Shown piece after piece: positions 182 through 48,833 of a stretch of 64,000 nt of DNA. Numbering within the stretch: position 1 is the first letter of the stretch; each line of letters begins with the position of its first letter. Made by a program: the position numbers and the translations under genes. The stretch is from Sisyra terminalis (Eukaryota; Arthropoda; Insecta; Neuroptera; Sisyridae). The stretch lies in the NCBI GenBank assembly GCA_958496175.1, contig OY292278.1, positions 12,462,001 through 12,526,000 of the forward strand, in the 5' to 3' direction. The notes below the pieces were generated by a model. That model worked only from the letters and a program-made list of their open reading frames with translations. It was not told the origin of the DNA and made no database searches.

Positions 182-420
182 AAGCTTTAAAGCAAAATAA
201 GTAATTTTTTGTTTCTATAATTACTATTTGTTGTAACATTTTTAAAGCGTTTTCCATATGACGCCTAATCGTTTCTCTTTTTCCTTCTTCAAAAAAATTT
301 AAAGCCAATTATTTGATTTATCGTGTTCATATCCATGATAATAATATGCAGTTGATGTTCATAGGTATTTGGCCTAATAAGACTGTTATTATTTAAACAA
401 TTCTTTACTATCATTGTACA

Positions 421-449
421 ACGTTTCGTCTCTTTTGAGACTTCTTCAG
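421..449 (-). ncRNA. Hammerhead-like ribozyme motif (left arm)
   Basis: On the minus strand: CUGAAGA, one A, stem II GUCUC/GAGAC closed by an AAAA loop, then GAAAC and GUUGUACAA. The core fits the CUGANGA...GAAA pattern of hammerhead ribozymes except for the extra A before stem II. The downstream GUUGUACAAU is self-complementary, as expected for a minimal stem III that works as a dimer. A 3' UH cleavage site is not clearly placed. Confidence 0.55.
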
Positions 450-676
450 GTACTGAAAAACACACAAAAATTATATAATTAATTACTGTCAGATCCAAGA
501 GCTGTGAAAATATAACTGATAGGTTAATTTTAACAACCAATATACAAATATATATCTTATGAAATTGACTTAATGTATTTGCATATTGGTTGTTAAAATT
601 AACCTATCAGTTAAATTTCCAGAGCTCTTGGACCTGACAGTAAATAATTGTATTATTTTTGTGTGTTTTTCAGTAC

Positions 677-703
677 CTGAAGAAGTCTCGAAAGAGATGA
701 AAA
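677..703 (+). ncRNA. Hammerhead-like motif, decayed partner (right arm)
   Basis: Mirror copy of the motif at 421-449: CUGAAGA, A, GUCUC, loop GAAA, GAGAU (a G-U closing pair), then GAAAAG instead of GAAACG. Stem II is kept but the 3' core flank has changed, so this copy is less likely to be active. Confidence 0.45.
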
Positions 704-792
704 GTTGTACAATGATAGTAAAGAATTGTTAAAATAATAACAGTCTTATTAGTCGAAATACCTATGAACATCAACTACATTTTAAAGCCAAT

Positions 793-3352
793 GTCTCTTT
801 AATATTTTATAAGACATTTTTCGTAAATACTTTTACCAAATTAACAAAAGGGGTTTTTATTTCAAGTCAAGAATTCCAACAGTTACCGATATTACTAATT
901 CGAGGTATACGTAACTAGAGGCAGTAGGCACCGTTAAACTTATAGATGGCAAAAAATTATCTTCGTGCACAAATAAATTAAATACATTAGGCGATTTCTA
1001 AAAAAATTAAATAGGAAAAAAAAATATTGGAAAGGTCTATTATAATTTTAATTTAAAGAAGAGAAGATCAAATTTGTTTTTGAGTATTCTCCCCTGGTTT
1101 CTTTTTTTTTTTTTTGAGGGAGGCTTTTCCTTATTTAATTCTTAACCACTACGGAAATCATGGAATTATTCTTCGGAAAATTGAGGTAGATAAAAACAAA
1201 CGTTTTTCTCAAATGACTGAAATTTGAGTTACCAATTTGTAAGTTACAATTTTACTAAGCCTAATAATTGCAACAATAAATATTGATTCATTCTTTCAAA
1301 TATTTGTTTGGTTTACTCTTTTACAGTAATTATTTTTGTAATTCGTGCGAAACGTTTTAAACAACATTTATTTCGGTTTTTTTTTCTGCTTATAAAGTAA
1401 AATATGAAGATGTAATTGCGTAAAATATTCCTTCAGTCAAAAATTATAACACGATCCGCACTCTTTATTCATAGTTGAAGAAAAGAATGAAAATGTCTTG
1501 CAATCTCAATGTTTTACCAATTTGTTTTCGAGGTAATTCATTTTCAATGTTATCGGTAAGTAAAATAATGAAAAAGAAAAAAAATCAACGCATTTATATT
1601 GGTATAAGAGAACGGCGAATTATTTTATTGTTGGCCAAGTGAAAGGTACTATTTTTCGTCTATTAGTGAATTCTCTTTGTTGCCAACCACTTGCGTCTTA
1701 TTCATTTTGTGCATTAGATAAATAAATAGTTTTAAATTACAGAGAAAAAAAAATGCCACCAAAATAAATATTTAAAGAAACTTAATTGAAATCATGTGTA
1801 TGACCATTATTTTATTTCCTTTATTTTATTAAGGGAATAACTAATGAGTAAAGTGTTTAAATGTGCTTTCCATTTTACATATTATTAAGGAAAATATCAA
1901 TTTAAAGGTCCGAAAAAAAATATTTTTGATATTCATAATGCGAAAATGATTCATTGGTGGGTTTTTAATGAATTTCAATTGCAATTAAAATAAACGCGTT
2001 GGAAAGTTGCTAGCGTTCCATGAATCGCACTTTAAATTTTCTGTAGTAATAATTTTTGGAAAATTTAACTTAATTTAATGATATGAGTTCATATTTCTAA
2101 TGTGATAATTACATAAAAATGAAGAAATTTGAATAAAGATAACAATCAATTTGGAATAGTCTACCCGAAGTTCTTAGCGTAGATTTTATTTGTGGCAATT
2201 TAAGTTATGAGTTATGAAAAAGTATTTATAGAGCATTGAGATTGGACAATCTAATGGTTAATTATTTTTAAAGAAATTAATGCATTTTTTTTGGTTGGTA
2301 ATTAAAAGGAAATCCATTTGTAAAGGCCTAGTTGGTGTAACTGTGTCAAGTCACGAAAATTTAAAATGATTTAAACAAGTTTTTGGAGTAAAATTTGCAT
2401 TACTTTATCTAGTATAAATTAAATAGTATTACAAAAAAATATTAAAAGCTTTTTTTTGAATCTATTCATATACTTTATCATTACCGTAGCCGCTTTTATT
2501 AATTTTAAAGTGTTAAATTTGCCATAGACATTTGATAATGGCTTTAAAAGTTGTATGAAAAAAAACTTTTGACAAAATTTTCTTAGAAAAGGAACAATAG
2601 ATTATACATTTTGAGAGTATTTTATCTTAAAAATATTAGTTTAAGTTAGAGAATATAAACTTTAGGTTTATTTCACATGAATGAAGATTTGGCTACAAGC
2701 CAAAGGACTTCTGGTTTGTTCAGAAATCAACAATTTAATTCTATGTAGTGCAATAATTTTCAGCTCTTTCAGAGCTAAAATATTAAATATTATTACCATA
2801 GAGTATAAAATGTTACAATTAAGGCAAAGGTTAAAAATTTAAACGAGAAAGTTTATATCGGTAGATTTTTCAATTCTTTTCTTCTATTGTAGTACTGCAA
2901 CTATTACATCCTCAATGAACTCCAAATCTATGCTTTAATCTTGCTCAGTTTCCTAAAAATCAAAGAACTTTTATTAAATATAATTCAGCTGTAAATAAAG
3001 CCAAAAATGTAAGCCAATAGGCTTCATTTTTACAAATAACTTCCAAAATTAAAACTCTGTAAATGATAAAATTGTAGCTTAATTATTTTACCAGTTATAC
3101 TTTCAAGTTCTAACATTGGTTTCCTTTTTTTGTTTTTAATCCTTTTTTTCCTCATAACATTAAAGGTACGTTCCAAACAATGACGTCATGAACCATACGT
3201 TGGTCACCAAAATTGGTGCAAAAATTGTTTAAAGTTAAACGCACCTTAAGTAGTTTCATGAAAACTATAGTACTTAACTTTCAAAATTCGATCCCATACT
3301 TTAGTTTTATACTACGAAATCCAACCAAAACTAATTCACAAAGGAATTATGC

Positions 3353-3354
<2 letters not shown>
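793..3354. other. AT-rich non-coding stretch
   Basis: No convincing gene, RNA gene or transposon end is seen. A perfect CRE-type palindrome TGACGTCA lies at 3181-3188, but one 8-mer in DNA of this length is weak evidence for a regulatory site. Confidence 0.5.
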
Positions 3355-3406: not shown

Positions 3407-3408
<2 letters not shown>

Positions 3409-8183: not shown

Positions 8184-9173
8184 ACTGGACCAAAAAAATG
8201 GACTATTTTTTTTTTTTTTGAAAAGTATATCAAAAATATTGTGCAATGTGACAAAAAAAAAATATCGGGAAGGTTAGAGCCCTTAATATAAATATTAAGA
8301 GGTCTATCATATTTAATTTTGATTTTTTATTTGTGCTTTCATTTTTGCCTCAATGCTGTCAAACTATCAAGGTAAAAAAAATCATCTACACATATGATTA
8401 TAGAAAATCAAATTCCCTACAAAAAAAGTCTCCATAAAAAATTTTGCCAGACACGCCGTTTCCGAATAACCAAGCTTTAAACATTGATACAATTTTTAGA
8501 TTTATCTTCTTTATTTTGAAATTTTGTAACTAACGAACAAATAAATATATGGAAATGAACAATATAGATGCTTGAAAGGAATTTAATGTTCTACAAAAAA
8601 GGTCTTTTGACGTTTTTACATAAAATCACTGTTTCAAAATTGGTTCAACAACGAAAAAAACAATAATTTAATTTTACCTTCAACTTTAATTGTGAATAAC
8701 TTTTGAAAAAGTGATTTTATGTAAAAACGTTTAGAAACCTTTTTTGTACAGCATTAAATTCCCTTTCAGAATCTATATTGCTTATTTCTATATATTTATT
8801 TGTTCGTTAGTTACTAAATTCCAAAATAAATAAGATAAATCTCAAAATTATATTAATGTTTAAATGTTTAAAGCTTGATTATTCAGAAACGGCATGTCTG
8901 GCAAAAATGTTCAAAGAGACGTCTTTTGTAGGAAATTTAATTTTCTACAAATATATATATATATATATATATATACAGATGAATTTTTTTACATTGGTAG
9001 TTTGATAGCATTGACGCAAAAATGAAAGCACAAATAAAAAATCGAAATTAAAGATTATAGACCTCGGAATATTAATATTAAGGGCTCAAACCTTCCCGAT
9101 ATTTTTTTTGTCACCATGAACATTATTTTCGATATACTTTTCAAAAAAAAAATAGTTGATATTTTTGCCCAGA
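8184..9173. repeat. Long foldback (inverted-repeat) element, about 990 bp
   Basis: The left arm (about 8184-8640) and right arm (about 8701-9173) are diverged reverse complements over about 450 bp, separated by a 60-bp spacer. Matching landmarks include TATCGGGAAGGTT/AACCTTCCCGATA, TTTTTGCCTCAATGCT/AGCATTGACGCAAAAA and a CTAACGAACAAATAAATATA block. The right arm carries an extra (TA)n run at 8950-8976. There is no open frame. This is a foldback-type or large MITE structure; no clear target duplication was found. Confidence 0.88.
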
Positions 9174-9966
9174 CGATTTGGAAAAACAGAAACTCTTTAA
9201 ATAATTATTGCTTTGTATTTGGTAAAATTAAAAATCGCAAATTTTGGTTCGCAACTAGTCAATACTTGGAAGTTCATCATAAGGTCAATAATTAACGAAA
9301 ACATATAAGGAAAACAAACTAGTTGATTTATTTTCTAGGAGGATATGAATTCATTTGATGTAATCGAAGGAAAACTTAAAGTAAAAAATTGATAAAAATC
9401 GTGAATTTTTAGAAAAGATTAAACGATAATCGTAAAGAAAATACTTCGCTAAAAATTGACGACACTAATACGAAAATTTTACCATAATGGAAACTAAATT
9501 AGTAGCTAGGCAAAAAAATTATACTCAAGGGATTTAACTATAAATTACCTAAGATTCTTCCATAAAAGTTATGTAACTAAAATGAATTGGTACACCTGAT
9601 TTTTTCGAAAGCATATCTTTAAATGAATTTAACTCACGTAAATAATGCGTAAGGCTGGTTGAATTTTTAATTGATTTTTTAGTTCATTGTTGGTGCTTAA
9701 ATTTTAATTTACGATAATTTTGTAGAATGATTTGCTTGTTAATATAAGAGAGAATTGAAAATATTATCGTTTTTTTAATATAAAAATAAAACACAATTTT
9801 TTATCACTTCATTTTAAATCAATGATACAATTGTCTTCAATATTATCAACTTTTTAACATTTAGTGTGCCAATTTTTAATGCCATATCAGAAAAAGTCAA
9901 TTGATTACTAAGAAATAAAAATCAAAAAGTATATCCTTTAAATTTTATAGGGAGTTGAAAAAAAAT
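9174..9966. other. AT-rich stretch between two foldback repeats
   Basis: Nothing beyond simple AT-rich sequence is seen here. Confidence 0.5.
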
Positions 9967-10588
9967 CTTAAGCTAAGAATTGGAACAAAATCTATGCCAG
10001 ATAATTGAAGAACTGTCCAATATTCCTTATTAATCCTACCAATTGACCTACAAGTTGTCCAACCAAATACCCTCAAGTTTCCAAGAATTGTCAAAATGAA
10101 AGCTTTACTCTGCAACACGGTAATGCAAGATTCTTCTACAGAAAAAAAGCCTATGAAAATTAAGGGGAGTAATATTGCCTAAATTACTAAAATCTTCCAA
10201 AGTTACTCCATCTGATATTTATTTATTTTAATCCCTACATTATTTTTTTAGTAGTGAAAAAAATGAAAAATTAAATGATGTAATTTTTCATTTTTGTCAC
10301 TATTAATAAAAAAACTTAGAAATTGAAATGAATAAAGATCAAATAAAACTTTGGATTTTGGTGGTTAAGGCAATTTTACTCCCCTTAATTTTTAAAGGGC
10401 TTTTCTTCTGCAAAAGAGTCTTACATTACCGTGTTGCAGAAAAAAGTTTTCTCTTTTGCCAATTCTTTAAAGTTTGAAGGTATTTGGTTGGTCAACTTGT
10501 AGGCTAATTGTTAGGATTAATCATAAATATTGAACAGTTTTTCAATTATCTGGCATGGATTTGGTACTACTTCCTTCCTTAACATCTT
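9967..10588. repeat. Foldback element, about 620 bp
   Basis: About 9967-10190 pairs with about 10372-10588. Landmarks are TATGCCAGATAATTGAA with TTCAATTATCTGGCAT, TGCAACACGGTAATG with CATTACCGTGTTGCA, and AATTAAGGGGAGTAA with TTACTCCCCTTAATT. The short AT-rich centre is also partly palindromic (AATTTTTCATTTT against AAAATGAAAAATT). No coding sequence. Class unknown. Confidence 0.88.
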
Positions 10589-11938
10589 ATTGTTTAAAGT
10601 TCTTATCATTTTTGGTTGGTAAAAGTTGAAGAATTTAAAGTTATCAAATTTTAACCTTAAAAAAGACTCATTTGACATTAATGCTCAATGCATTTGAATT
10701 AATTTTGTTAATGTTTTGATACCAAGTTTGTATCACTATCCTAAGAAAGTTGAAAAGCTTGCAATATCGAATTTGCACTTCTTCGGGTTCCTTCTTCTTC
10801 GGGTTTTTGGTCTTCCTAATTTATATAGATTTCTGGATAAAAAATATTATTGAGTTTTTTGTAAGTACCATTTTTAAATAACTTATGTACTGATAAATTA
10901 CAATTGAATATGTGTTCAAAAACAACGGTTTTTTTCTAATAAGATTGAACAAAGTTATAAAATATTAAACTTAGAAAGAAGTTGGAGGTTAGGGCTGTAT
11001 TGTTATGACTCTAAATCACTATACTATTGTTCTTCTTAAGAGATTTAAAGTTTATATTAAATGTAAATAGAATCAATAAATTTTTCAATAAATTATTGAA
11101 TAATGTATTTAGGGGTAATGAAGACAAAACTTTAACGTTTTACATTCGGTTATTAAACTTTTCTTTTCATAAAAGGAAAATATTACCGACCAAATAGTAA
11201 TCCACGCCGATGAAGCCACGAGCATCGGCAAGTTAAGTAATAAATTCGTGACTGCATTTTTCTTTATTTCACTGTGAAAAACCCATAAATAAACGCGAGA
11301 AAAAATAACGTGGAGGCGTCTACTCATAGCTTTCTTTTATCAAAGGCTTTTTGGTCGTCTTATGTCAAAAATATAATGCACCATGCGGCACTGTAATCGA
11401 TATTTTGGTTCAATTGGGAAACGTGTCTCGTTCGTTATTGTGAAACGAACGAAAATTTAACTCTATCACGTTTCGTAATAAGAATTCAGACACAAAACGG
11501 AGGTAGGAACACGGCAAATCGATACGATGCAATTGAGTGAAATGAATTTAGAATGCTTTTATTGAAAAAAAAAATACACTTTCGCAAAAGAAAGTCTTTG
11601 ATATTCTATGACTCGGCCGGTTAAAATAAATATTTGTTTTTACTCAGTAATACGTTTTGGGTTCTTTAATCTTAATTATGAAATGCCTAAAGAATGAAAA
11701 TACTAAAAAGATTTCAATGCATTTGTACCAATAAAATAACAAAAGCAATTCATGCAATATTCGATTTGCAATGCTACAGGATACTTGAGGTACTTTGTTT
11801 CTCTTTAGCTTTTGTGTAAAGCTACGATAATAAACCTTTTTTTTTCTTCCATATTCATATCATAATTTTCTTTCCGAAACTTTGAATATTCTTACTAAAC
11901 CTATATTAAATGGTTCTTATGGGATTCTAATGCTTTAT
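10589..11938. other. Non-coding, no feature recognised
   Basis: The stretch contains no supported gene. The minus-strand frame at 11109-11327 has no domain I recognise. Confidence 0.45.
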
Positions 11939-12676: not shown

Positions 12677-13063
12677 TGTGATAACTTAAACACAACTATA
12701 ATAATTATTTTCTCAATTTTGAAATGACCGATTGTTGTCATTAGTTTCGACCGCCATTTCTTTTTCATTCAATTGCCAATGTTTGCCATTTGTCGGTGTC
12801 GTCAGTGTTGGACTGTGAAAATTTCCCTAGATAGTTATTAGTTTTCAAATAACAGATTAAATTGGTGACTAACGATCTTTTTAGTGACATCAATATTCGG
12901 CAACGATGAATTTTCGACTTTGTTTTTAATTTATTTTGCTATTTGTATGTAAATTCTTTAGTACTACCTATTCTATACTTCTATCTACTAATAATTCATT
13001 ACTACTACCACCAACAAAATATATAAAAATCTTAATTGTAGTATTTTAGATCCTCGATGATAA
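12677..13063. other. Non-coding spacer
   Basis: No feature is recognised in this spacer. Confidence 0.45.
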
Positions 13064-13126
13064 TAGATTAATAAAATATTCAGAGGACTAGGATCAAAAA
13101 TAATCGGTTAAAACTTTATTTATTAC

Positions 13127-13347
13127 AGATGATAAAATTCAGATCTCAGTTTTTATTAAATAAGAAGACAATTCGAGTGTTTTATTATAAAATTTTTTTA
13201 TTAATTGAATTTAAATTGAAAATATTATATTTTTTGTGATTCAAGAAGCCTGATGAAGTTACGATACGTAACGAAACGTAGCTAATTTGAATATTAAAAA
13301 ATATTAAATAAAAAAAGCGATCTTAAACAACCTGAATTGTCTTCTTA
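13127..13347 (+). mobile_element. Nested hammerhead-bearing element, family A, 12-bp TSD
   Basis: TTTATTTATTAC occurs at 13115-13126 and 13348-13359, an exact 12-bp target duplication. Removing the insert restores pairing between the arms of the host palindrome, so the insertion is younger than the host. The 221-bp body starts with AGATGATAAAATTCAGATC and ends with GAATTGTCTTCTTA. Related copies lie at 21949-22314, 36140-36473 and 47515-48821. Confidence 0.88.
13250..13282 (+). ncRNA. Hammerhead-like ribozyme motif, family A
   Basis: CUGAUGA (13250-13256), one A, stem II GUUACG-AUA-CGUAAC (six pairs), GAAA (13273-13276), then CGUAGCUA. The core residues of a hammerhead are all present. The A at 13257 is extra relative to the canonical fold. 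The UAGCUA palindrome after the core could form a dimeric stem III. Confidence 0.6.
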
Positions 13348-13363
13348 TTTATTTATTACATGC

Positions 13364-13396
13364 GAAGTTTCGGCTCCTTTATTGAGCCTTCGTCAG
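13364..13396 (-). ncRNA. Hammerhead-like motif (left arm of host palindrome)
   Basis: Minus strand: CUGACGA, A, stem II GGCUC-AAUAAAG-GAGCC, then GAAACUUCG. The core is complete apart from the shared extra A. Stem II has a sequence unrelated to family A yet pairs perfectly. Confidence 0.58.
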
Positions 13397-13751
13397 GCTT
13401 TCTTAAAAAATTGTTTTTACTTTGTTAATAATTATCGTTGTCATAATTCATTGTTATAGACACGGTACAGTTGGTAAAAACAATAATAAAACTTCCAAGA
13501 CATAAAAATTTTTCAATAAAAAATAAATAATTTTTCGATAAAAATAATAATTAAAAAAATTCAGTTAAAAATTTACATTAGTTTAACACTCAAGTTTAAA
13601 CTCACTAATCGAAAAAATATTTATTTGGTATTGAACAATTTTTATTTCTTGGAAATTTTATTATTGTCTTTACCAATTGTATCGTGCCTACAAAAATGAA
13701 TATGACAACAATAATTATTAACAAAGTAAAAACAATTTTTTTAACGAACGC

Positions 13752-13784
13752 CTGAGGAAGGCCTAATAAAAGAGCCGAAACGCC
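13752..13784 (+). ncRNA. Hammerhead-like motif (right arm of host palindrome)
   Basis: CUGAGGA, A, GGC, a 10-11 nt loop, GCC, GAAACGCC. It is the mirror of the motif at 13364-13396, with a shorter surviving stem II. Confidence 0.52.
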
Positions 13785-13851
13785 ACATGTAATAAATAAA
13801 GTTTTAACCGATTATTGTTGATCCTAGTCCTCTGAATATTTTATTAATCTA

Positions 13852-15844
13852 TATATGATATCTAATAATTTTTTGATATCTTTTCAAATTTACAAAATTT
13901 TGTGAAATTAAACCAAATTGGTCAAATATTAATAGAACAATCACAAAAATATAAGGAAATTTACATTAACTCTAGCAAATTGGAAGACGGAATTGGATAT
14001 TCTTTGCCAGTGGTTTCCAGAACTTCAATAAGATCATTGGTACGTATAACCGAAAAGTTAGAGTTTTCCGTTTTTATTTTCCACAACTTTTGTTGAATTT
14101 ACTCAAAACCATTCAGAAAAGTCGCATTGAAATTTTTCAGTCGGCCTTTGTATTGTAAAACTCCTTGATTTTATCAAAAAAGATTTGAAATATTTACAGG
14201 AAAAGTGAATAGAAATTGATTGATATGTAGTCAAAATTTTAATAAGGTCAAGTTAATTTGTGATAATCTAACCTTTTGAATCGTATTAATTATAGCCGAA
14301 TTTATTTCAGTTGTTTCGTAACAGATATGTGTAGATAAAATGTTGGGAAAATGGGACCGACTGTAATGAAATGCACTAATAGTGCAAGTGGCAAGGACCG
14401 GATTTTTTTCTTATATATTTGTCAAAAGAAAATGTTTATATGTGCGGTCTTTTGTCTAATGGAAAACTCTCTCTTTGTTGCGCCATAAATCAGTGCTGTT
14501 GCCGTTTGATTCAGTTGTTGAAGATTTGGAAAAAATGCAATGGAAAGTATTGGAATCGAATAAATACCTGGCGTCTTGTAAATTAACGGTTTTCGTCGAT
14601 GTTGGTTTGTGTGATTGTATTGAATGTCATAAACGTGCATTCGTTTACGCAATTCGTTTTTATTGATTCGATAAAAGACAATAAAAATTCAGCCATGGCC
14701 TAGTGATTTCTTCAATGCATTTTCGGAGGCGACTTGGAAAATTTGGATGCGTACGGTGTTTATATATGTGTGTATTAGTATGTGTAGTTGAGTGAGTAGA
14801 GGAGGAGGCTCGTTTGTCTAATACTATAAGGTCATTTATTATGTGTAGATGTGATGAAAATCACTTTTAAAAATTGAAAATGCTATGAGAAAAACAACTA
14901 TTGTTGTTCAATTTTTATACATGAAAACGTTGATTGATCCTTGAATTTTGATTTGATATAATATAATGATACAATTGATTAATGATAATTGACCACCAAA
15001 ACTCAAGGAATACTAAGTAGATATCATTTTTGGATAATCATTCTCCAATAGTTGCAAGCAAAGAAAAACATGAATGAGAAATATTTTTAGTGAAAGTTTC
15101 TTTAAGAAATATGCATCAAATGTGTAAAAATTTTTGATGCACTTATCCCAATATGGCTGTTGACTAGAGAAAAAAAATTCGTTAGTGTTTTTAAGTAAAT
15201 AAAAAAAATCTTCCAAAACGCAATTGAGACCATTTCAAGGTTTGTACGATGAAGGTTAATTGCGCGTTCTTGACGATGATATTCTAATCACTAAATTCAT
15301 TTTTATGTAATCTGAAATGGATAAGCATTTTATTTTGGTTTCAATTTATTTAATGTTGAGTGTATGAAGTCTACAAAGTGAAAAACTTTTTCGATCATCA
15401 TCTAATGATATTTTTTGTGTCTTAAGCTTTGCTAGTTGACATTTTCGTGAGTCAAATAACTAATACTTATTTGTTGGCATGGTATAGACGGGAATCGGTC
15501 AAATTTTATTGATAATAAATTCAAATTTTTCGCAGAATTGACAACGTCACGAAAGTTTGTAGGATAGAGAAATCACTGTCATTTCCATTTCAAAAGAAAA
15601 TCAACATTGACGTTACGTTGTATTAGTTTGATGTCAAATTTTACCTCTATAATAACAAGTGGAGTATTTATATTGAAAATGATCAGTTTTTTTTTAAATT
15701 TAAACATTTATTTTGGATATTTTTGAAGGCTAAAGCTTCTTTAAAGTTGCCTTAACAATCAAATGTAGTCAAAACTGAATATTAACCATTTTTTCGCTAG
15801 TTTTGTCTTCGATTGAATAATTAAAATAAAATTGCCTATTTGTC
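13852..15844. other. Non-coding stretch, partly more complex
   Basis: No gene is supported. About 14330-14840 is more complex than its surroundings (overlapping short frames on both strands at 14422-14666, a GAGGAGGAGG-like purine run near 14810) but shows no domain or splice architecture that I trust. Confidence 0.45.
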
Positions 15845-15851: not shown

Positions 15852-16257
15852 AATAGACCAATTAGCCTCTTATCAACTATATTTAAACTATTCGAAAGAC
15901 TCCTCTTGCAAAAAACCGAAACCCATTTTAGAAGAGAAGGAAGTTATACCGAGCAGGTCCATCGAGCTGCTGAAACTATAATAAAATTCCTACGATAAAC
16001 TATAATAAACTATAATAACTATAATAAAATTCCTACACCAAAAAAATACTATTCTGCAATATTAATTGACATAAGTCAAGCCTTTGACAGAATTTGGTAC
16101 AAAAAGTTCATTCATAAAATGGAGCAAAAAATCGCGAATCCATTGGTCAAAATAATATCTTCATACCTGGAAAAAAAGCAATTTAACGTTTCCATGAAGG
16201 AGAGTTCTTCGGAACTTTACCCAATTAGAGCGGGAATCTCACAAGATAGCATCTTGA
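15852..16257 (+). pseudogene. Jockey-like non-LTR reverse transcriptase fragment
   Basis: Reading +, the first piece gives NRPISLLSTIFKLFERLLL, then TEQVHRAAETIIKFL. After a small local duplication with a stop (about 15995-16040) comes KKYYSAILIDISQAFDRIW, then KFIHKMEQKIANPLVKIIS and YPIRAGISQDSIL. These match RT motifs of the jockey clade: RPISLL, the catalytic (L)D(I)SQAFD block carrying the first Asp, and the AGVPQGSVL block, here with SQD for PQG. About 10 residues before EQVHR are missing compared with the minus-strand copy. There is no ATG and no FADD block; the fragment ends at the inverted junction. Confidence 0.85.
16242..16256. other. Palindromic junction between two inverted RT copies
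   Basis: CAAGATAGCATCTTG is a perfect palindrome around a 3-base centre. The plus-strand RT (15852-16257) and the minus-strand RT (16245-16760) both run into it, and in both it encodes the PQGSIL region (S-Q-D-S-I-L on plus, P-Q-D-A-I-L on minus). This suggests an inverted junction formed at short self-complementary homology. Confidence 0.75.
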
Positions 16258-16760
16258 GGCTGACCCCGTAATTGATTTTTATATCCATAATACCATTTTT
16301 CCGGTATAAGGCTATTATTCTGACCAATGTATTCGGAATTTTTTGCTCCATTGTATGGATGAACCCTTTGTGCCGAACTCTATCAAAGGCTAGACTAATG
16401 TTAAGAAATAGTACGGAACAGTATTTATTTTGGCTTAGGGATTTTACTCAAGTTCCAGCAATTCGGTAAATCTTTTCGATTATGGTGTACTCCTGCCGAA
16501 ATCCAAACGGATGGCTCGGTATCACCAAGGTTTATAAAATACACTGGTGGCCTCATGCACTTACGTGGCGTATCCAGAAGAAATTCGTACATATCTTCAG
16601 ACTGACTCAAATTTCAAAATTCTTCGTATGACGTCATTTTTTTTTCTAATGGGGCGACCTGTGTAATTTTTAAACCTTGCGGTATCACCCCCTTCTCTTC
16701 TAAAGCAGGCATTAATTTTTGCAAGAGGAGACTATCGAATAGTATAGATAAATTCGGTAG
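16245..16760 (-). pseudogene. Second jockey-like RT fragment, inverted relative to the first
   Basis: On the minus strand the DNA near 16700-16755 aligns with the KLFERLLLQK part of the plus copy. Next come the FGFRQEYTIIEKIYRIAG block (about 16520-16450), NISLAFDRVRHKGFIHTMEQ (about 16390-16330), IPNTLVRIIALYRKN and RGQPQDAIL. Frames shift between blocks and a stop follows VKSLSQNKY. It is interrupted by the MITE at 16526-16679. Its deeper divergence from the plus copy shows that the two were separate or have long been apart. Confidence 0.82.
16526..16679. mobile_element. 154-bp MITE nested in the RT pseudogene
   Basis: CGGTATCAC flanks the insert at 16517-16525 and 16680-16688, and its removal rejoins the RT reading (EKGVIP to PSHPFGFR). 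The ends are inverted repeats: CAAGGTTTATAAAATACAC on the left against CAAGGTTTAAAAATTACAC on the right, extending to about 30 bp. The CAAGG end fits the loose hAT terminal consensus, but a 9-bp duplication is not the usual 8 bp of hAT, so the superfamily is open. Confidence 0.85.
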
Positions 16761-21564: not shown

Positions 21565-22410
21565 TTAGGTGTACCGGAAAGAAATTTCGTTTATAAACCT
21601 ATAATCATTCAATTGCCATTTATCTGCTTATATGTTATTTCAAATAAGTACTATAGACATTTTACGATTAGAGCAATTTAAAAGGAAAACCCTGGAAAAA
21701 CTAATGAATTTAAGGGGGAGGGATTATATTTTTGTACCCATTATAATCGTTCAATGTTATTCCATTGGATTTCTATTTATTTCAATCATTACAATATTTA
21801 CTAAGTGGTAAACAAATTAAAACTTTAGTGATATGCAAAATGTAAATTTTTGATACTTTCCTCAGCAATCAATGGATTTTACTAATAAGGCATTGAAAAT
21901 TTGTCTACTAGATGTCAAAACGTGGATACTATTGAGGTTGATTATATCTTTTTTTTAACAAGAAGACAATTCAGGTTGTTTAAGATCGGTTTTTTTATTT
22001 AATATTTTTACTATTCAATTAGCTACGTTTTGTAACGTATCGTAACTTCATTAGGCTTTTAAAAAAATAAAATAAAATAATTACAAAATATGTCAATCAT
22101 ACATAAATTTCAAAATATGACAAATATTTTAAGAGATATTATTATAAATAATGAAATATATAATAATAAAATACTTTGATTCACAAAGTTACGATACGTA
22201 ATGAAACGTAGCTAATTGAATAGTAAAAATATTAAAAAAAAAAAACGATCTTAAACAACCTGAATTGTCATCTTATTTAATAAAATAAAAGCTGAGATCT
22301 GAATTTTATCATCTGTTGATTATATCATTGATTAAAAGTCGAAAGTTGCAACAAAATTTTATGTTTAAATTGAATTTTAAAAACATGGAATCACTTTCCG
22401 GTATACCTAA
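21565..22410. mobile_element. Mariner-like MITE with TA target duplication
   Basis: The left end TTAGGTGTACCGGAAAG (21565-21581) and right end, read inward, TTAGGTATACCGGAAAG (22410-22394) differ at one base and are each flanked outside by TA. After removing the nested element and its duplication the body is about 470 bp, with no transposase frame. TA insertion and a TTAGG-type terminus suit the mariner group. It is likely a non-autonomous derivative. Confidence 0.75.
21949..22314. mobile_element. Nested hammerhead-bearing element, family A, 12-bp TSD
   Basis: GTTGATTATATC occurs at 21937-21948 and 22315-22326. The 366-bp insert begins near AACAAGAAGACAATTCAGG and ends with GAATTTTATCATCT. 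Its two halves are inverted: AGGTTGTTTAAGATCG on the left against CGATCTTAAACAACCT on the right. The minus-strand motif at 22025-22053 is decayed (CUAAUGA for CUGAUGA, CAAAAC for CGAAAC). The plus-strand partner near 22187 has lost the CUGAUGA part. This copy is probably inactive. Confidence 0.87.
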
Positions 22411-27170: not shown

Positions 27171-27545
27171 TTTCGGGGTACTACGATTCTTTCAGAATCA
27201 TAATTTGATGACCGATTCTTATAGATCTCAACAATATAAAACGAAATTGAAGAATAAAATTTTTCGATATTTCGCTTAGTTTTTAAGTAAATTCGAAAAT
27301 TTAATATCCGATATTGATGTTGTTAAAAGGGACAAGAGCCAAGAAAGTTTGCTTTTAGGCTGCACTCCTGGACACCTTGTTATAGTTTTATTCGCCAAAA
27401 AAAATAATTTTTAAGTATTGATTTATTTCTTTCACAAATTAAGCGAAATATCGAAAAATTATTCTAAATTTTCCTTTTATTTCTTCGAGATCTATAAGAA
27501 TTCGTAGTCAAATCCTGGCACCGGAAGAATCGTAGTTTTTCTGAG
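27171..27545. repeat. Foldback element, about 375 bp
   Basis: About 27171-27290 pairs with about 27425-27545; ACTACGATTCTTTC faces GGAAGAATCGTAGT, and TTTTTCGATATTTCGCTTA faces TAAGCGAAATATCGAAAAA. The roughly 130-bp centre is more complex (CTGCACTCCTGGACACC). There is no open frame, and the class is unknown. Confidence 0.82.
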
Positions 27546-34135: not shown

Positions 34136-34801
34136 ATAAATTGAGCTTTTCTGGCTCAGAGAACTGTTACAGACCATAAAAACATATTCATAGCACTATA
34201 GGTAAAACTTTTCTCGAATTTTACACGACTGAAAGGCAATTCTTTGTATGTCTTGAAGACTCTGCAACTGATCTTCGAAACGTAATATAGAAAATTTCCC
34301 AGGAATGAATTTTGGTACCTTTGGTTTTATGGTGTAAACGACGGATCTTCTAGTTGTCAAAAGTATCAGAAGGGCAAAATTCTCAGATAATACTTCGAGT
34401 CACAATTAATAGATTAAAGAATTATCAAATACATATGTCACATGACTAAATTTCTTTATTGAATACAATGCGTTTGTTAAATAAAGAAATTGAGTCAAAT
34501 GACATCTAATTATTTATTAACTCAAAAAGCACTTAAAAGCAGTCTAAGAGCAAATTGGTCAAACAAAACAATCAAGAAATAAAAACATGTTTTTGGTACC
34601 AATTTTTTTCCTGGGTATAGCATTAAAAAATAAAACCCAGAAAAAAACAGCCTTTGGCAAACTATTGTAATTGGTTATAGATAAAACTGTTCGAACAATA
34701 TTTTTTAAATGTTTTCCATGAATTACTTTCTATTGATATCGTTATATATTAAAAACATAATTGTTACTCAATTTTAATACTTTTGTAGTTGAATTAAAAA
34801 G

Positions 34802-35179
34802 ATTACTTTGTTTAATATCAGGATTACAGGTTATTGGAAATACAGTTAAATTAATTTCAACAATTTTTAATTTGTAACGTTTCGTCTTTATTCTTAAGAC
34901 TTTATCAAGGTCTGAAAAATATTATAATAATTAACAACATACATAAACATACTTAACATATAATAATTAGTTTGCAATAATATTATTATATGTAAATTAT
35001 GTTGTTAATTATTATAATATTTTTCAGAGTTTGATAAAGTCTTAAGAATAAAGACGAAACGTTGCAAATCAATAATTGTTTAAATTAATTTTACTGTAAT
35101 TCCAAATACTCGTGATCCTGATATTGTTATTATTTTTATTTATACTGGAATTGAACCTTACATAAAATTACTTTGTTTA
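34802..35179. mobile_element. Palindromic element with hammerhead-like motifs, 13-bp TSD
   Basis: ATTACTTTGTTTA occurs at 34802-34814 and 35167-35179. The 352-bp body is nearly all palindrome: about 34817-34970 pairs with about 34985-35137. Each arm holds a GUCUUAAGAAUAAAGAC hairpin followed by GAAACGUU (minus strand 34876-34910, plus strand 35030-35063). The preceding core reads UUGAUAAAG rather than CUGAUGAAG in both arms, so the motif is either a variant or dead. Non-coding. Confidence 0.85.
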
Positions 35180-36127: not shown

Positions 36128-36485
36128 ATTATTTATTTAAATAAGAAGACAATTCTGGTTGTTTACGATCCATTTTTTTTATTTATTATTCAAATTAGTT
36201 ACGTTTCGTTACGTATCGTAACTTCATCAGGCTTCTTGAATCACCAAAAATATAATTTTTTCAATTTAAATTCAATTAAACAAAAAAAAATGAAAAAAAA
36301 TTAAAAGAAAGTAGCTAAATTGAATATTGAAAAAATATTAAATAAAAAAAAATGATTTTTTTTTAAATGTTTTCCTTATGATTATCACCGAATATGTGCC
36401 AATTTTATGAGTATTTTTAAAACTGAGATCTGAGATCACTGAGATAAAAGCTGAGATCTGAATTTTATCATCTATTATTTAATTA
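36128..36485 (-). mobile_element. Hammerhead-bearing element, family A
   Basis: The body (36140-36473) begins with AATAAGAAGACAATTC and ends with GAATTTTATCATCT, the same ends as the copy at 21949-22314. The flanks ATTATTTATTTA (36128-36139) and ATTATTTAATTA (36474-36485) match at 11 of 12 bases, again a 12-bp duplication. The right half is a degraded inverted copy. Confidence 0.78.
36201..36230 (-). ncRNA. Hammerhead-like ribozyme motif, family A
   Basis: Minus strand: CUGAUGA, A, GUUACG-AUA-CGUAAC, GAAAC, GUAACUAA. It is identical to the motif at 13250 through the core and stem II. Confidence 0.6.
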
Positions 36486-36648
36486 GTCTTATAATAGGAA
36501 AAGGATTACTAAGATATACAATATAAAAGATATATTGCAGTCCAATTTATGTAGTATAATTTAATATAATAATATATAAAAATCATACCACAAACATAAA
36601 TTTGAACAGAAGTTCAAACAAAAATATTCGTGACGTATTGCCCAGATA

Positions 36649-36677
36649 CGTATTTCGATTGCCAAGCAATCTTCACA
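36649..36677 (-). ncRNA. Hammerhead-like motif, core lost (left arm)
   Basis: Minus strand: UGUGAAG in place of CUGAUGAAG, then a perfect stem II GAUUGC-UUG-GCAAUC, GAAAU and ACGUAU. The stem is intact but the core is changed. Confidence 0.42.
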
Positions 36678-36749
36678 AATGATTCACACAATGATTCATG
36701 TGAATGATTACAAAGCAGTTACGGAGTGATCCAAACTACTTGATGATCA

Positions 36750-36780
36750 CTGATGAAGCTTGCTTGGCAATCGAAATACG
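36750..36780 (+). ncRNA. Hammerhead-like ribozyme motif (right arm)
   Basis: CUGAUGA, A, GCUUGC-UUG-GCAAUC (one C-U mismatch), GAAA, then UACGUAUC. UACGUA is a perfect palindrome after A15.1 and is followed by UC, which fits a minimal type I hammerhead working as a dimer with cleavage after UC. This is the copy where a plausible cleavage site is easiest to place. Confidence 0.58.
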
Positions 36781-36924
36781 TATCTGGGCATTACGTCACG
36801 AATATTTTTGTTTGAACTTCTGTTCAAATTTATGTTTGTGATATGATTTTTATATATTATAATATTAAATTATACTACATAAATTGGACTGCAATATATC
36901 TTATATTTTGTATACACAATATAA

Positions 36925-37189
36925 CTGTTCAAAGTCAGCGAAAAAATCTTATTTTGATTACTTAGAGGTTTTAAAAGTGCATTATTTGAATTATAATCTG
37001 GATTTCCTTGATCAATAGTTTAATACAAATGAAAGAAAAAACTTAAAACATTAATAAAGAATGAAAAAATAATGATTTTAACATTTATACTTTCGATTGC
37101 TTTGACAATTGAAAATGTTTTTAAAATAAAATTGGTAAATATTTGGTAATAATTATAAGGAATACTTTTCAAAAAAAAAAAAAAGGAAT
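36925..37189. other. AT-rich spacer
   Basis: Nothing is recognised. Confidence 0.45.
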
Positions 37190-43449: not shown

Positions 43450-44087
43450 CAGAGCTGTGAAAATTATTAAACTCAAGACAACTCAAAAGAAAAAAAAAAC
43501 ACATTTTTACTTTTAAATGCCATAAATTTAAAAATTACAATAATTTCACTCATCTAATATTTTGTGTGGTACCCTTTATTGTTTATAATTTCTTTTTTTC
43601 ATCCTGGTATGCGCTTTACTATTTTTTCCATTTATATTTTATTATGATGCCAAATCTTAATGAGTTTGGTAATCAGATCCACCCGTATTGTAGTAGTTTA
43701 TTTTTTTTAGTTTTTTCTTCACAATGGCCAAGAAATTTTCTATGGGATTAGCATCAGGACTATTTCCTGGCCAAGAAAGCACATAAATGTTAGAATTTTT
43801 TAAGAAATCCATAACTTTTTTGGCTTTATGGCAAGGATTTCCATCCTGCATAAAGATAAAATTTTCTTCCGGAACCACTCTTTAGTTTGAGGAATTAACC
43901 GCGTTTCCAAGACTTATATTTATTGGTCTTACCTCATAGTACCTTCCACAATGTATATCCAACTGGTACCCTTTGCTGACATGCATCTCCAAACCATAAC
44001 TGATGTTCGGTGTTTTATAATCTGGGCGATACATTGCTGGAAGAAAGTAAAAATCTTCTTGTGAGTCTAATAATTTTCACACTTCTG
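43450..44087 (-). mobile_element. Internally deleted Tc1-like element, TA target duplication
   Basis: The terminal inverted repeats are CAGAGCTGTGAAAATTATTA (43450) and, read inward from 44087, CAGAAGTGTGAAAATTATTA, followed by (A/G)ACTCA. TA stands outside both ends (43448-43449, 44088-44089). At 638 bp it is less than half the usual Tc1-like length; the N-terminal DNA-binding half of the transposase is missing. Confidence 0.9.
43657..44036 (-). pseudogene. Tc1-like transposase, C-terminal fragment
   Basis: On the minus strand the frame from 44036 reads MYRPDYKTPNISYGLEMHVS, passes one TAA after NSSN, then FIFMQDGNPCHKAKKVMDFL and SWPGNSPDANPIENFLAIV. The second catalytic Asp (QDG) and the Glu (PIEN) are 34 residues apart, the DD34E spacing of Tc1 transposases. 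The first Asp region is not clear, the 5' half is gone and the C-terminus ends soon after. It is non-functional. Confidence 0.88.
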
Positions 44088-45530: not shown

Positions 45531-45575
45531 AATAAGGACGAAGTTTCTTGTGGAATCTTATTTATTTTATCACCA

Positions 45576-45606
45576 ACGTTTCGTCAGTTATTCTTGACTT
45601 CTTCAG
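45576..45606 (-). ncRNA. Hammerhead-like ribozyme motif, single copy
   Basis: Minus strand: CUGAAGA, A, GUCA-AGAAUAAC-UGAC, GAAAC, GUUGGUGAUAAAA. The core is complete except for the shared extra A, and the four-pair stem II differs from all other families here. No inverted partner arm was found, so this may be a truncated element; it directly follows the jockey fragment. Confidence 0.52.
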
Positions 45607-45712
45607 GGCTCTATAATGAAAATACATAACATTTAAAAATAGCCACAACTATTGTCAAAATTATAAATAAATAAATAACAATTCATAAGGCTTAGTAGTC
45701 TATATAAATATT

Positions 45713-45714
<2 letters not shown>

Positions 45715-45784
<70 letters not shown>
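45715..45784. repeat. (TA)n microsatellite, the longest in the window
   Basis: About 34 uninterrupted TA units. Confidence 0.98.
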
Positions 45785-45789
<5 letters not shown>

Positions 45790-47502
45790 CTATCATTGTT
45801 ATAAATAAATATTCGGCAATTATAGTTTAGTTAAATATTTGGTTAAACAAATATCCAAAAACATCATTCAAACTGTTATTTATCTCAACAATATTAACTC
45901 AACTGTTCAATGTTTTATTCAGACAATTTCGTTTGCCAGAGAATCTTAATACAAATAACAAAAACTTTCCTTGATAAAATATTATTTTTCATAATTGATT
46001 TCTCTGTCACCTATTCCCTGGTTCATGAATTGAAAGCTCTTGTGATCAAATTGAAAATTAAGTTTTTGAGCATTTGTGATGCTGTAAAGGTTAACAATGA
46101 AACGTCGAAGACCAATCTTAACTCAATTATTAATTCAAAAACAATTAAATCGATACTGAAATAAAATTTTCTGATCGTCTAAAGACGTAGGTATTAATTG
46201 TTTACCTTGACAAAATTCAATGGCTCGAAAAAGGGAAGTTTAAGTTCAAGGTTGGTACGTTACAATTAGACTGAATAATCAAACAATTAAATATTTGATT
46301 AAAACAAAATGTCTATTTATACAGAAAATTGAACAGTGAGAAAAGGGTGAAAAAATTAAAAGACGACAAATTAAAAGGTGCTGATTTTTTTTTCAAACGT
46401 TGATTAGAGTTGTGGTAGTCTGTAAATTTAAAAAAAAAAATAGTAATTGCTGGTTTTCTTTTGATTTTTTCTAGGAAAATTTTCGAAAAAAAAAACGCTA
46501 TTCAAGCCATTTGAATTTTTGATCGTAAAATTTGCGTATTTTTTACGAATTTATGAGTATTTATAATAAACATGAGAATCGTTGAAACCGTAACAAATTT
46601 CACTCGAATAAACCTTGAACTCTGCTCGTATTTCATAAAACAAAAAAAAATAAATACATTTTACGGAAAAAAGGTTTTTATTACATCTAAATTTAAACAA
46701 TAAAGAAAATATTTTATTTACTTAAAACGACTCTTTTTTTTGCAATGACTTATCAACCTTATGGGTGTGTATATGTGTGCATATAAACTTCATTTTATGT
46801 AATATGATGTATTAAACATATGTATGTCGTTTTATATATACGTAAATTGTATATAGTATATGTGTACTATGGTAAAACGAGTGAAAGGGTGGTTTATTGA
46901 TCCAGATTGAGGAGGGTTGCTTCACTTTCGTTTTGCGCATACATAACGCATAAATATCCATCGCATAAAAGCATTTTACATGTACTTGCGTTTGATATAC
47001 ATTTTTTGAAATGAAATATTGAAAATGAAATTTTCAATAGTCAAATTCCTTGACAAATATTGCAGAAAAACTTAAATTTATAACAATTACATTATAAAAT
47101 GATCCATTTAAGATTCGAATTTAAAAAATCTGGAGTAGAAATATAGTTTTATTTTCACACTGTGGAAAAATAAAAATATAAATAATTTACGCCAAATGGG
47201 TGGAAAATTTTCTCTCAAATCTTTGTAAAATTTAAAGCTTTAACCAATTGTCAAGTGGAGTTAAGGGTTCAGTCATTGTATCAGTGTTAATTAAATTTAG
47301 TTTCAAATTACCGTTAGCAATTTAAAAGTTTTCGTTGTACTACAGCTTTGGTTTACAATACACAAAAACACTAAGTACTTTAACTTGTAGTTAGAAATTA
47401 AACTTATAAACCCGAAATATAATACGTGGTTGTCTTCGTTGTCTTTTCAATTACGCTAAGAAACATACCGAAACATTGTATTTTTGAAATTAAAAATTTA
47501 AC
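45785..47502. other. AT-rich non-coding stretch
   Basis: The 84-codon plus frame at 45910-46164 has no domain I recognise and biased AT-rich codons. Nothing else is seen. Confidence 0.4.
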
Positions 47503-47555
47503 GTAAATTTTAACAGATGATAAAATTCAGTTCTCAGCTTTTATTAAATACTAGT

Positions 47556-48678
47556 AGTTGCCCGTTGCATTCGCAACTATAGGTTTTATCTCAATAAAAT
47601 GTTTAATATGAGATAATGTAGTGTTAATCAACAATTGAAGTTTTAAATTTAATTATCAAAGTGTTGTTAATATAAAAAAAAAATTATCTAAAATTATATT
47701 AAGAAATAAAATATAAGTGTTTTTCTTTTATATCATTTTAATAACAATATTTTAAATAACGTCATTTCACTAAATTAGTATGAAAGTTTAATACTTATGT
47801 AGTACTTATCCCAAATAGGCGATTTTAAATTTTGGTTCGTTTTTCAACAATCAAACTTTTTAAAATCTATTTTATTTTATGAACCAATGGTTGTGATCTG
47901 GAGTAATTATATATTCGGTTGAAAAGCATTAAGGTAGCAATTTTTTGCCATATATTTCACTGTCAACTCAAATATAAAATCTTCGATACAAAATTTTTTT
48001 CGGTATTTAGAACAATTTGAAAACCAATTGTTCTTGAAAATAATTAAAATATTCGAAATTAATTCCAGGCTTTCCACCTATTTCCAACAATTTTGTATGT
48101 ACAACGTCCAAATGTGCGAAATCGAATAGCCTTTTAGTCATGTTAACTAACATAAAGAAGGTCATTATTTTTTTTCGTTTAAAATTGTATTTTCAAATAT
48201 GACTGCGCATTTGTGTCGATGAAATTTGGAAAGTGTTTTCCTTATACGATGCAGATATATAATAAGAAAAGGTTATTGAAAATTCCTCCCCTAAAAAATG
48301 GTAACAAAGTTTGTAAGGGATGACGTTTAATAAACAATCGAAATTTCAAATTTAATAATCAATCAAAGTCCGTTAAAAGCGAAACGTTATTACTGCTTAG
48401 TATAAAACAAAGTTGATTTATTATTAGAAACAAAAACTTAGGGTCTGCTTAAAAATTTAAACTCTGATAAGTAGGTATATCTGAAAAGGTTAAGTTAAGT
48501 TTACAAGTGAGTATTATGTTTTTTAAACCTGAAAATCCGAAATACGTATTCACAAATAAATACATTAGTGAGTGAGTACCCCAACCAAAGTTTCGAATGC
48601 GTAAGTGGGAATAACAGAGCGCATGCGCATTGTCTATTCTGCTCGGACGCACGGCAAGATAGCCAATTTATATATATG
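47556..48678. mobile_element. Unclassified 1.1-kb insertion in a family A element
   Basis: It starts CTAGTAGTTGCCCGTTGCAT and ends GATAGCCAATTTATATATAT. The start recalls the ACTAG.TGTT(G/A)CCCG ends of repeats seen in many arthropod genomes. The body is AT-rich with a complex 3' part (AGCGCATGCGCATTG). There is no clear inverted repeat and no protein. Its boundaries are set by the interruption of family A, not by its own ends. Confidence 0.5.
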
Positions 48679-48747
48679 AAGAAGACAATTCAGGTTGTTT
48701 AAGATAAGTTTTTTTTTTATTTAATCTTTTTAATATTCAAATTAGCT

Positions 48748-48776
48748 ACGTTTCGTTACGTATCGTAACTTCATCA
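48748..48776 (-). ncRNA. Hammerhead-like ribozyme motif, family A
   Basis: Minus strand: CUGAUGA, A, GUUACG-AUA-CGUAAC, GAAAC, GUAGCUAA, identical through core and stem II to 13250 and 36230. Confidence 0.6.
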
Positions 48777-48833
48777 GGCTTCTTGAATTACAAAAAAATA
48801 AATATTTTCAATTAAAATTCAATAGATTTTAAC

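What the first reader, a model, noticed from the sequence alone, without database searches (positions are those of the whole stretch)
298..48833. Several unrelated palindromic elements share one RNA fold: CUGANGA-A-stem-GAAA
At least ten motifs in about six sequence families keep the same core. Stem II changes sequence while keeping pairing: GUCUC/GAGAC (421), GGCUC/GAGCC (13364), GUUACG/CGUAAC (13250, 36201, 48748), GAUUGC/GCAAUC (36649), GUCA/UGAC (45576), GUCUU/AAGAC (34876, 35046). Covariation of this kind points to a selected RNA structure. It matches the hammerhead ribozyme core, known from Penelope-like elements and retrozymes. The sequence itself shows the covariation; the ribozyme identity and the element class are inference.
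Basis: partly seen in the sequence, partly recalled or inferred. Interest (0 to 1): 0.88.

Follow-up and report, generated by a model that had tools for sequence, protein, structure and literature searches.

The report
Penelope retroelement scars with hammerhead ribozymes
The repeated RNA fold is very probably a small hammerhead self-cutting RNA of the kind carried by Penelope-like jumping elements, and the palindromes around it look like old insertion scars of those elements, a known kind of thing seen here unusually clearly.

Summary
The motif is real: a scan finds 9 copies (simulations: mean 0.76, maximum 4 in 50 runs). With two U3-A8 copies and one decayed copy, 12 are accepted in six families, each with one extra A after the core. 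Stem II, the predicted stem I and the C3-G8 pair covary. Stem III is a self-complementary ACGU or AUACGUAU in 9 of 12, as expected for minimal, dimer-type hammerheads of Penelope-like elements (PLEs). Rfam does not call it (best 10.4 bits, cut-off 52), and computed homodimers did not form the double hammerhead (0 of 4).

Six insertions have an 11-16 bp target duplication, abutting one palindrome end and lying beyond a one-sided tail at the other (five by script; E2 by eye). This is the published inverted-pLTR anatomy of PLEs. In family E both kinds of end are fixed, which fits reverse transcription started at two RNA sites, one from each cut strand.

No PLE coding sequence was found in 20 of 148 frames scanned; cleavage is untested; the host genome could not be searched. 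New members of a known kind.

The parts
298..309 (.). Element A, left target-site duplication TTTAAAGCCAAT
   Evidence: 12/12 match to 781-792; a score of 12 or more occurs in 0.0013 of 1500 random placements
310..341 (-). Element A tail (outside the palindrome, one side only)
342..784 (.). Element A palindrome (arms 342-553 and 573-784, 92% complementary; the last bases overlap the right target duplication)
424..449 (-). A- hammerhead motif; predicted cut after U at 420
   Evidence: Hammerhead_HH9 alignment with one inserted base, 10.4 bits, below cut-off
677..702 (+). A+ hammerhead motif, ACGU decayed to AAGU
781..792 (.). Element A, right target-site duplication
13063..13852 (.). Element D palindrome, interrupted by E1; no target duplication recognised
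13368..13396 (-). D- hammerhead motif
13752..13780 (+). D+ hammerhead motif (decayed, one stem II mismatch)
13115..13127 (.). Element E1, left target-site duplication TTTATTTATTACA
   Evidence: 13/13 match to 13348-13360
13128..13347 (.). Element E1 (tail at left, partial palindrome), inserted in D
13250..13276 (+). E1 hammerhead motif; predicted cut after A at 13280
13348..13360 (.). Element E1, right target-site duplication
21937..21948 (.). Element E4, left target-site duplication GTTGATTATATC
   Evidence: 12/12 match to 22315-22326
21949..22314 (.). Element E4 palindrome plus tail (tail about 22286-22314)
22028..22054 (-). E4 hammerhead motif, decayed (G5 and G12 changed)
22315..22326 (.). 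Element E4, right target-site duplication
34799..34814 (.). Element B, left target-site duplication
   Evidence: 15/16 match to 35164-35179
34815..35163 (.). Element B palindrome plus tail (tail 35126-35163)
34880..34908 (-). B- hammerhead motif with U3-A8 core
35031..35059 (+). B+ hammerhead motif with U3-A8 core
35164..35179 (.). Element B, right target-site duplication
36128..36139 (.). Element E2, left target-site duplication (11/12 match to 36474-36485)
   Evidence: read by eye; the automatic search did not list it among its best three, and E2 was not put through one search's test
36140..36473 (.). Element E2 (untailed left end, rearranged tailed right end)
36204..36230 (-). E2 hammerhead motif
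36474..36485 (.). Element E2, right target-site duplication
   Evidence: by eye
36504..36514 (.). Element C, left target-site duplication GATTACTAAGA
   Evidence: 10/11 match to 36956-36966; weak on its own, 7% of random placements score as high
36515..36955 (.). Element C palindrome plus tail (tail 36915-36955)
36649..36690 (-). C- copy: stem II, GAAA and AUACGUAU kept, CUGANGA core lost; not counted among the 12
36750..36776 (+). C+ hammerhead motif (one stem II mismatch); stem III AUACGUAU at 36776-36783; predicted cut after C at 36784
36956..36966 (.). Element C, right target-site duplication
45579..45606 (-). F hammerhead motif, single copy, element limits not found
47515..47545 (-). E5: tail end of an E-family copy only
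   Evidence: 96.8% over 31 nt to the E4 tail; the match to E1 stops 3 nt beyond E1's tail end
48682..48823 (-). E3: single-arm E copy, no target duplication found; limits from similarity to E1 only
48751..48777 (-). E3 hammerhead motif; predicted cut after A at 48747

Best explanation
These are insertions of six sequence families (A and B may be related; not tested) of Penelope-like retroelements reduced to their terminal-repeat (pLTR) region, without recognised coding sequence. Each unit carries a minimal type I hammerhead at what would be the pLTR/ORF junction: CUGANGA, one extra A, stem II, GAAA, then a self-complementary stem III that can only form between two RNAs or two tandem copies. 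Copying most likely runs as follows. An element-encoded reverse transcriptase/endonuclease, supplied in trans, cuts both DNA strands and starts cDNA at two RNA sites about 30-40 nt apart, downstream of the hammerhead, one start on each strand. The two cDNAs, both running 5'-ward through or towards the hammerhead, meet head-to-head. This leaves a palindrome with one tailed and one untailed end inside a target-site duplication. Shown here: motif, covariation, target duplications, one tail per insertion, fixed end points in family E. Inferred: PLE enzymes in trans, two-strand priming (about 0.55), dimer cleavage at the predicted H17. Selection on the ribozyme would act in the source elements; the copies here look like decaying relics.
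For: Motif and chance control. Stem I register (9 of 12 motifs with 2 or more pairs) and self-complementary stem III (9 of 12); unconstrained monomer folds form stems I and II for 3 of the 4 motifs folded. Covariation, including C3-G8 to U3-A8; PMC3088659 (passages) reports U3-A8 covariation in several hammerheads and activity in vitro. Target duplications with one abutting end and one tail: A, B, E1, E4 at control frequencies 0.0007-0.0013 each, C at 0.07. The tail rule was not forced for A, B, E1 and E4: with no tail requirement, ranks the same repeats first. E2 read by eye. In family E, matches to E1 stop within 3 nt of E1's tailed end in E2, E4, E5 and within 8 nt of its untailed end in E2, E3, E4 (sequences). 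PMC3846280 (passages and Discussion) describes PLE inserts with head-to-head inverted pLTRs, a 31-bp tail on one inverted pLTR, and 8-10 bp duplications. PMC11167929 (main text section) reports a PLE hammerhead with the ORF starting at stem II, two RT start sites that define the 30-40 bp tail, a start 111-118 bp into the ORF, and cutting and extension of both strands.
Against: No GIY-YIG match, and no reverse transcriptase match inside the elements, in the 20 open frames scanned of 148 of 60 aa or more; the two weak RVT_1 matches at 16 kb lie outside the elements and I take them for LINE-type from recalled motifs. No Rfam hammerhead above cut-off. Computed homodimers of four motifs do not form the double-hammerhead pairing (0 of 4), and C+ does not fold as a hammerhead even alone. 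E2, D+ and B- have no stem I pair in the predicted register. No target duplication found for D or E3; F has no limits. C is an outlier (tailed end 198 nt past stem II) and its duplication is weak. E2's tail region is rearranged. I read no source on the effect of the extra A. Inside each palindrome the hammerhead is only slightly better kept than the rest of the arms (0.93/0.90, 0.91/0.80, 0.87/0.86, 0.84/0.82 in A-D). In element A's transcript fold the A+ motif region is 44 of 45 positions paired.
Confidence: 0.89

Rival explanations
1. The palindromes arise by self-priming (snap-back) of one strand during copying, not by two target-primed starts, as proposed for rotifer Penelope elements.
For: Proposed in PMC3846280 (Discussion) from palindromes at the inverted junction, on an antisense template.
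Against: Snap-back gives no reason that I can see for a second fixed end about 30-40 nt from the first; here E-family untailed ends agree within 8 nt in 4 of 4 copies and 6 of 6 insertions with a target duplication have one tailed and one untailed end. PMC11167929 shows both strands cut and extended.
Confidence: 0.3
2. The fold is kept as a binding or start site for the reverse transcriptase and is not, or no longer, a self-cleaving ribozyme.
For: PMC11167929: PLE hammerhead mutants do not affect insertion in vitro and the RNA does not cleave without the protein. The extra A, the short stem I and the absence of an internal stem III would be expected to lower activity; homodimer folds did not show the double hammerhead (0 of 4).
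Against: Core conservation and C3-G8 to U3-A8 covariation are what catalysis needs; the title of Lunse 2017 (seen in reference lists only) says such variants cleave as dimers.
Confidence: 0.25
3. Metazoan retrozymes: short non-autonomous elements whose tandem copies make circular RNAs through type I hammerheads.
For: Small, non-coding, hammerhead-bearing, possibly mobilised by PLEs (PMC7761336 and PMC7229834 passages).
Against: Published retrozymes are tandem direct repeats of about 150-400 bp; here copies are inverted or single, with no same-strand pair of one family within 1 kb. Those hammerheads mostly keep a helix III, absent here; loop-loop contacts were not tested.
Confidence: 0.05
4. 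Foldback or MITE-type DNA transposons that happen to carry the motif in long terminal inverted repeats.
For: Long inverted repeats flanked by short duplications.
Against: Inverted repeats reach the duplication on one side only (6 of 6); the tail is fixed in family E; duplication length varies 11-16; families A, B and E place the hammerhead at a similar distance from the end.
Confidence: 0.03

Closest known systems
Penelope-like elements with inverted pLTRs and tail (e.g. Pen2a_Av, PMC3846280, passages and Discussion seen)
   Same: Head-to-head inverted pLTR-like arms, a tail of about 30-40 nt on one inverted repeat, short target duplication, AT-rich targets
   Different: Here no ORF or direct pLTR lies between the inverted arms; duplications are 11-16 bp against the 8-10 bp quoted for the rotifer; the A-D elements match their own inverse at 77-89%
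[quoted passage not shown] 2017, not held; PAc in PMC11167929, section read)
   Same: Stems I and II, helix III reduced or absent, position upstream of the RT start sites by a similar distance
   Different: One extra A between the core and stem II in 12 of 12 motifs; whether published PLE motifs share it I could not check, since the two primary papers are not held
Hammerheads with U3-A8 core (PMC3088659, passages seen)
   Same: Family B carries U3-A8 in both arms
   Different: The passage does not say that its examples are PLE-type
Metazoan non-LTR retrozymes (PMC7229834, passages seen)
   Same: Small non-coding elements with type I hammerheads
   Different: Tandem direct repeats and circular RNAs there; inverted or single copies here

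Membership tests
Hammerhead ribozyme (type I) | Core CUGANGA ... GAA(A15.1) with stem II | tested here: met
   9 strict motifs, each with one extra A; two family B motifs with U3-A8 instead; one decayed E4 motif
Hammerhead ribozyme (type I) | Stem I pairing between the base 5' of C3 and the base 3' of H17 | tested here: met
   9 of 12 motifs have at least 2 consecutive pairs in that register; E2, D+ and B- have none; for C+ I set stem III to 8 nt, for the rest to 4
Hammerhead ribozyme (type I) | Stem III with A15.1-U16.1 | tested here: inconclusive
   No internal stem III; 9 of 12 have a fully self-complementary ACGU or AUACGUAU, fit for a dimer, but computed homodimers did not show it (0 of 4)
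Hammerhead ribozyme (type I) | Score above an Rfam hammerhead cut-off | tested here: not met
   0 hits; none at E up to 10 over the window; HH9 10.4 bits against 52 for A-; none for E1
Hammerhead ribozyme (type I) | Self-cleavage at H17 | not testable with these tools
   needs RNA assay
Penelope-like element insertion | Target-site duplication | tested here: met
   A, B, E1, E4 strongly and C weakly by script, E2 by eye; not found for D or E3; F has no limits
Penelope-like element insertion | One-sided tail at the 3' end of one inverted pLTR | tested here: met
   6 of 6 insertions with a target duplication; 29-41 nt in five, longer and rearranged in E2
Penelope-like element insertion | Two discrete RT start sites downstream of the hammerhead | tested here: met
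   Seen as fixed ends in family E only: 4 of 4 tailed and 4 of 4 untailed ends agree within 3 and 8 nt
Penelope-like element insertion | RT plus GIY-YIG protein | tested here: not met
Metazoan retrozyme | Tandem direct repeats bounded by hammerheads | tested here: not met
   No two same-strand copies of one family lie within 1 kb of each other
TIR or foldback DNA transposon | Inverted repeats reaching the target duplication at both ends | tested here: not met
   One end only in 6 of 6

The most novel reading that the evidence does not exclude
The palindromes are footprints of two-ended target-primed reverse transcription: each PLE insertion starts one cDNA on each cut strand, at two different fixed RNA sites, giving one tailed and one untailed arm that join head-to-head. 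The element can multiply as coding-free pLTR-only palindromes, and the hammerhead, with a one-base core insertion and in one family a U3-A8 core, is kept mainly as part of the RNA recognised by the enzyme.
Probability: 0.4. Interest if true: 0.6.

Novelty: new member of a known kind. Interest (0 to 1): 0.38.

Why it matters
PLE hammerheads and inverted pLTRs are both known, but how PLEs make inverted copies (left open in PMC3846280, Discussion) and why they keep a ribozyme (called a mystery in PMC7761336, passage) are open questions. This window, with six families and one family whose ends fall on two fixed sites, gives a simple genome-wide test of two-strand priming against self-priming. It also shows that Rfam's hammerhead models do not call these motifs.

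Tried and rejected
Rfam at gathering cut-off and at E up to 10 over the window, and at E up to 10 on two 71-base pieces: no significant hammerhead; the MIR5185 matches at 498-628 are below cut-off and lie in palindrome A.

A first whole-region target-duplication search was loose (control 95th percentile equals score 10). It ranked the reported repeats first for A, B, E1 and E4 and second for C; it did not list E2's and gave only a score of 9 for D. It was followed by a test with fixed geometry, which did not include E2. Arm limits came; for E1 the right limit 13351 came from the self-match. One search shows 25 of 40 inverted pairs.

Idea that the inner junctions of E1 and E2 sit at the hammerhead cut, so that cut RNA served as template: BLAST carries the short E1 arm to within about 3 nt of the cut but at 72% identity, by eye it is secure only to about 25 nt away, and the E2 junction lies in A-rich sequence, so no claim is made.

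Homodimer folding to show the double hammerhead: not seen in 4 of 4.

Seven other long palindromes used as controls do not show the tail geometry clearly; scores are 2, 5, 7, 2, 2, 9 and 4, the 9 being a poly-T match at 54396-55097 (2.7% of random placements).

Search of viral contigs for two family-specific motifs: 0 matches each.
Full report
WHAT WAS CHECKED. The window is AT-rich (26-31% GC), has no ORF of 150 aa or more (ATG/GTG/TTG start), and carries fragments matching Pfam reverse transcriptase (two frames, below the curated cut-off, LINE-type by my recollection of the motifs) and a DDE transposase, so I take it for eukaryotic genome. The host is not identified. The whole-genome search was unreachable in seven identical attempts.

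THE MOTIF. A two-strand scan for CUGANGA, 0-2 free bases, a stem of 4 or more and GAA finds nine motifs; 50 first-order Markov resamplings give 0.76 on average and at most 4. All nine have exactly one free base, always A. A relaxed score (which includes a bonus for ACGU) gives 11 places at 23 or above against 1.1 expected from 8 second-order resamplings; 10 of these are family copies and one (58450, minus) is probably chance. D+ scores 22 (15 places at that level, 4.75 expected). A decayed E copy at 22054 (minus) scores 21.5, and I accept it on family homology, not on score. The accepted set is 12 motifs in families A (2), B (2), C (1), D (2), E (4), F (1). The copy at 36649 (minus) has lost its core and is not counted.

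WHY A HAMMERHEAD. (1) Stem I: counting outward from C3 and from the base after H17 (stem III taken as 4 nt, 8 nt for C+), the predicted register gives a mean of 2.25 consecutive pairs over 12 motifs; register -3 gives 1.58 and the other eight registers 0.5 or less. E2, D+ and B- have none. (2) Stem III: 9 of 12 motifs have a fully self-complementary ACGU (AUACGUAU in C), leaving no room for a hairpin, so a full stem III could form only between two copies. (3) The minimum-energy monomer fold of A-, E1 and F, without constraint, forms exactly stems I and II; C+ does not (4 motifs folded). Homodimer folds of the same four do not show the double-hammerhead pairing, which counts against the dimer model as far as such energies go. 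(4) The core pair C3-G8 is U3-A8 in both copies of family B. PMC3088659 (passages seen) says these positions covary to U3-A8 in several natural hammerheads and that such ribozymes had been shown active in vitro. On the 12-row alignment the nine pairs of stem I, 3-8 and stem II form standard pairs in 84.3% of cells (shuffles 65.4%, 0 of 500 as high), with 8 of 9 pairs changed on both sides (2 of 500 as high); slid pairings reach 21-57%; further pair types are not exceptional (59 of 500 shuffles as high). The rows are not independent (four E copies, arm pairs), and C+ is misaligned by two columns in stem II, which lowers the count. In 57 viral-contig sequences matched by sequence alone, 0 have a stem II of 4 or more. 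Against: Rfam calls none of them; the best is HH9 on A- at 10.4 bits (cut-off 52, E 4.1), aligned in the predicted register with one inserted base; the E1 stretch gives no hammerhead line at E up to 10.

WHAT THE ELEMENTS ARE. A, B, C and D are palindromes whose two motifs (one decayed in C) point outward, that is head-to-head. With the requirement that a direct repeat abut one arm end and lie 20-60 nt beyond the other, A (12/12), B (15/16), E1 (13/13) and E4 (12/12) score at levels reached by 0.07-0.13% of 1500 random placements; C (10/11) scores at a level reached by 7%; D gives nothing. One search, which did not require a tail, had already ranked the same repeats first for A, B, E1 and E4 and second for C. 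E2 has 11/12 by eye. The extra stretch on one side is 29-41 nt in A, B, C, E1 and E4. In family E, matches to an E1 query that includes its flanks stop within 3 nt of E1's tailed end (E2, E4 and the fragment E5) and within 8 nt of its untailed end (E2, E3, E4). The sequences end CTGAATTTTATCATC or one base on, and just after GTCTTCTT, with some ambiguous A/T bases beyond in E2 and E4. From the first base of stem II the untailed ends lie at 96 (A), 86 (B), 90 (E1), 83 (E2, recalculated by hand; the script printed 92 from a limit 9 nt off), 88 (E3, limit from similarity only) and 98 (E4); the tailed ends at 132 (A), 125 (B) and 198 (C). I did not compute the others.

COMPARISON. PMC3846280 (passages; [quoted passage not shown] PMC11167929 (main text section read) shows for a lizard PLE that the protein cuts and extends both strands, that reverse transcription starts at two internal RNA sites whose spacing is the 30-40 bp tail, with a main start 111-118 bp into an ORF that begins at hammerhead stem II, that the target is AT-rich, that the hammerhead cleaves only with protein, and that hammerhead mutants still insert. 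PMC7761336 and PMC6155905 (passages) state that PLE hammerheads are minimal motifs lacking helix III; Lunse et al. 2017 and Cervera and de la Pena 2014 were seen only as references. The window elements match this anatomy closely. They lack a recognised coding part, so they are called PLE-derived, non-autonomous insertions.

MECHANISM. Shown: two fixed end points in family E, one tailed and one untailed end per insertion with a duplication (6 of 6), head-to-head arms, and inner limits of the tailed arm that differ between E copies (short of the hammerhead in E1, near its cut in E2, to stem II in E4). Inferred: one cDNA is primed on each cut strand, each starting at one of two RNA sites, and the two join. 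The published alternative is self-priming, which as I read it does not predict a second fixed end. The ribozyme's role is open. In the fold of the full element A transcript the A+ motif region is paired at 44 of 45 positions, so palindromic copies are unlikely to cleave. Arm identity inside the motif is only slightly above the rest of the arm, so there is little sign of selection after insertion; it would have acted in the source elements.

NOVELTY. Hammerheads in PLEs and inverted pLTRs with tails are published. In the search listings and the passages I read I did not find a report tying the one-tailed/one-untailed rule of inverted pLTR palindromes to two-strand priming, or a statement about the extra A. 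The two primary PLE hammerhead papers are not held, so the extra A may well be described there. I rate this a new member of a known kind.

Noticed in passing
54396-55097: A second kind of palindrome with 47-bp perfectly complementary ends, an inner near-perfect palindrome (54857-55002) and a weak 9-bp flanking repeat; no hammerhead motif among the best places.
   Followed up: partly
59822-60930; 8210-9152; 9959-10591; 27180-27536: Large imperfect palindromes; no hammerhead motif above chance level and no target duplication above the control range.
   Followed up: partly
16040-16430: Inverted duplication (80% complementary) of a reverse-transcriptase fragment (Pfam RVT_1 on both strands, E 5e-5 and 0.008, below the curated cut-off), LINE-type by recollection.
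   Followed up: partly
43660-43881 (-): DDE transposase fragment, Tc1/mariner-like (Pfam DDE_3, E 9e-10).
   Followed up: no
47515-47560: Tail end of an E-family element broken off after about 31 nt by sequence that does not match the family.
   Followed up: no
36649-36690 and 22175-22210: In C and E4 one arm keeps stem II and its surroundings but has lost the CUGANGA core, as if the core were deleted from one arm only.
   Followed up: no
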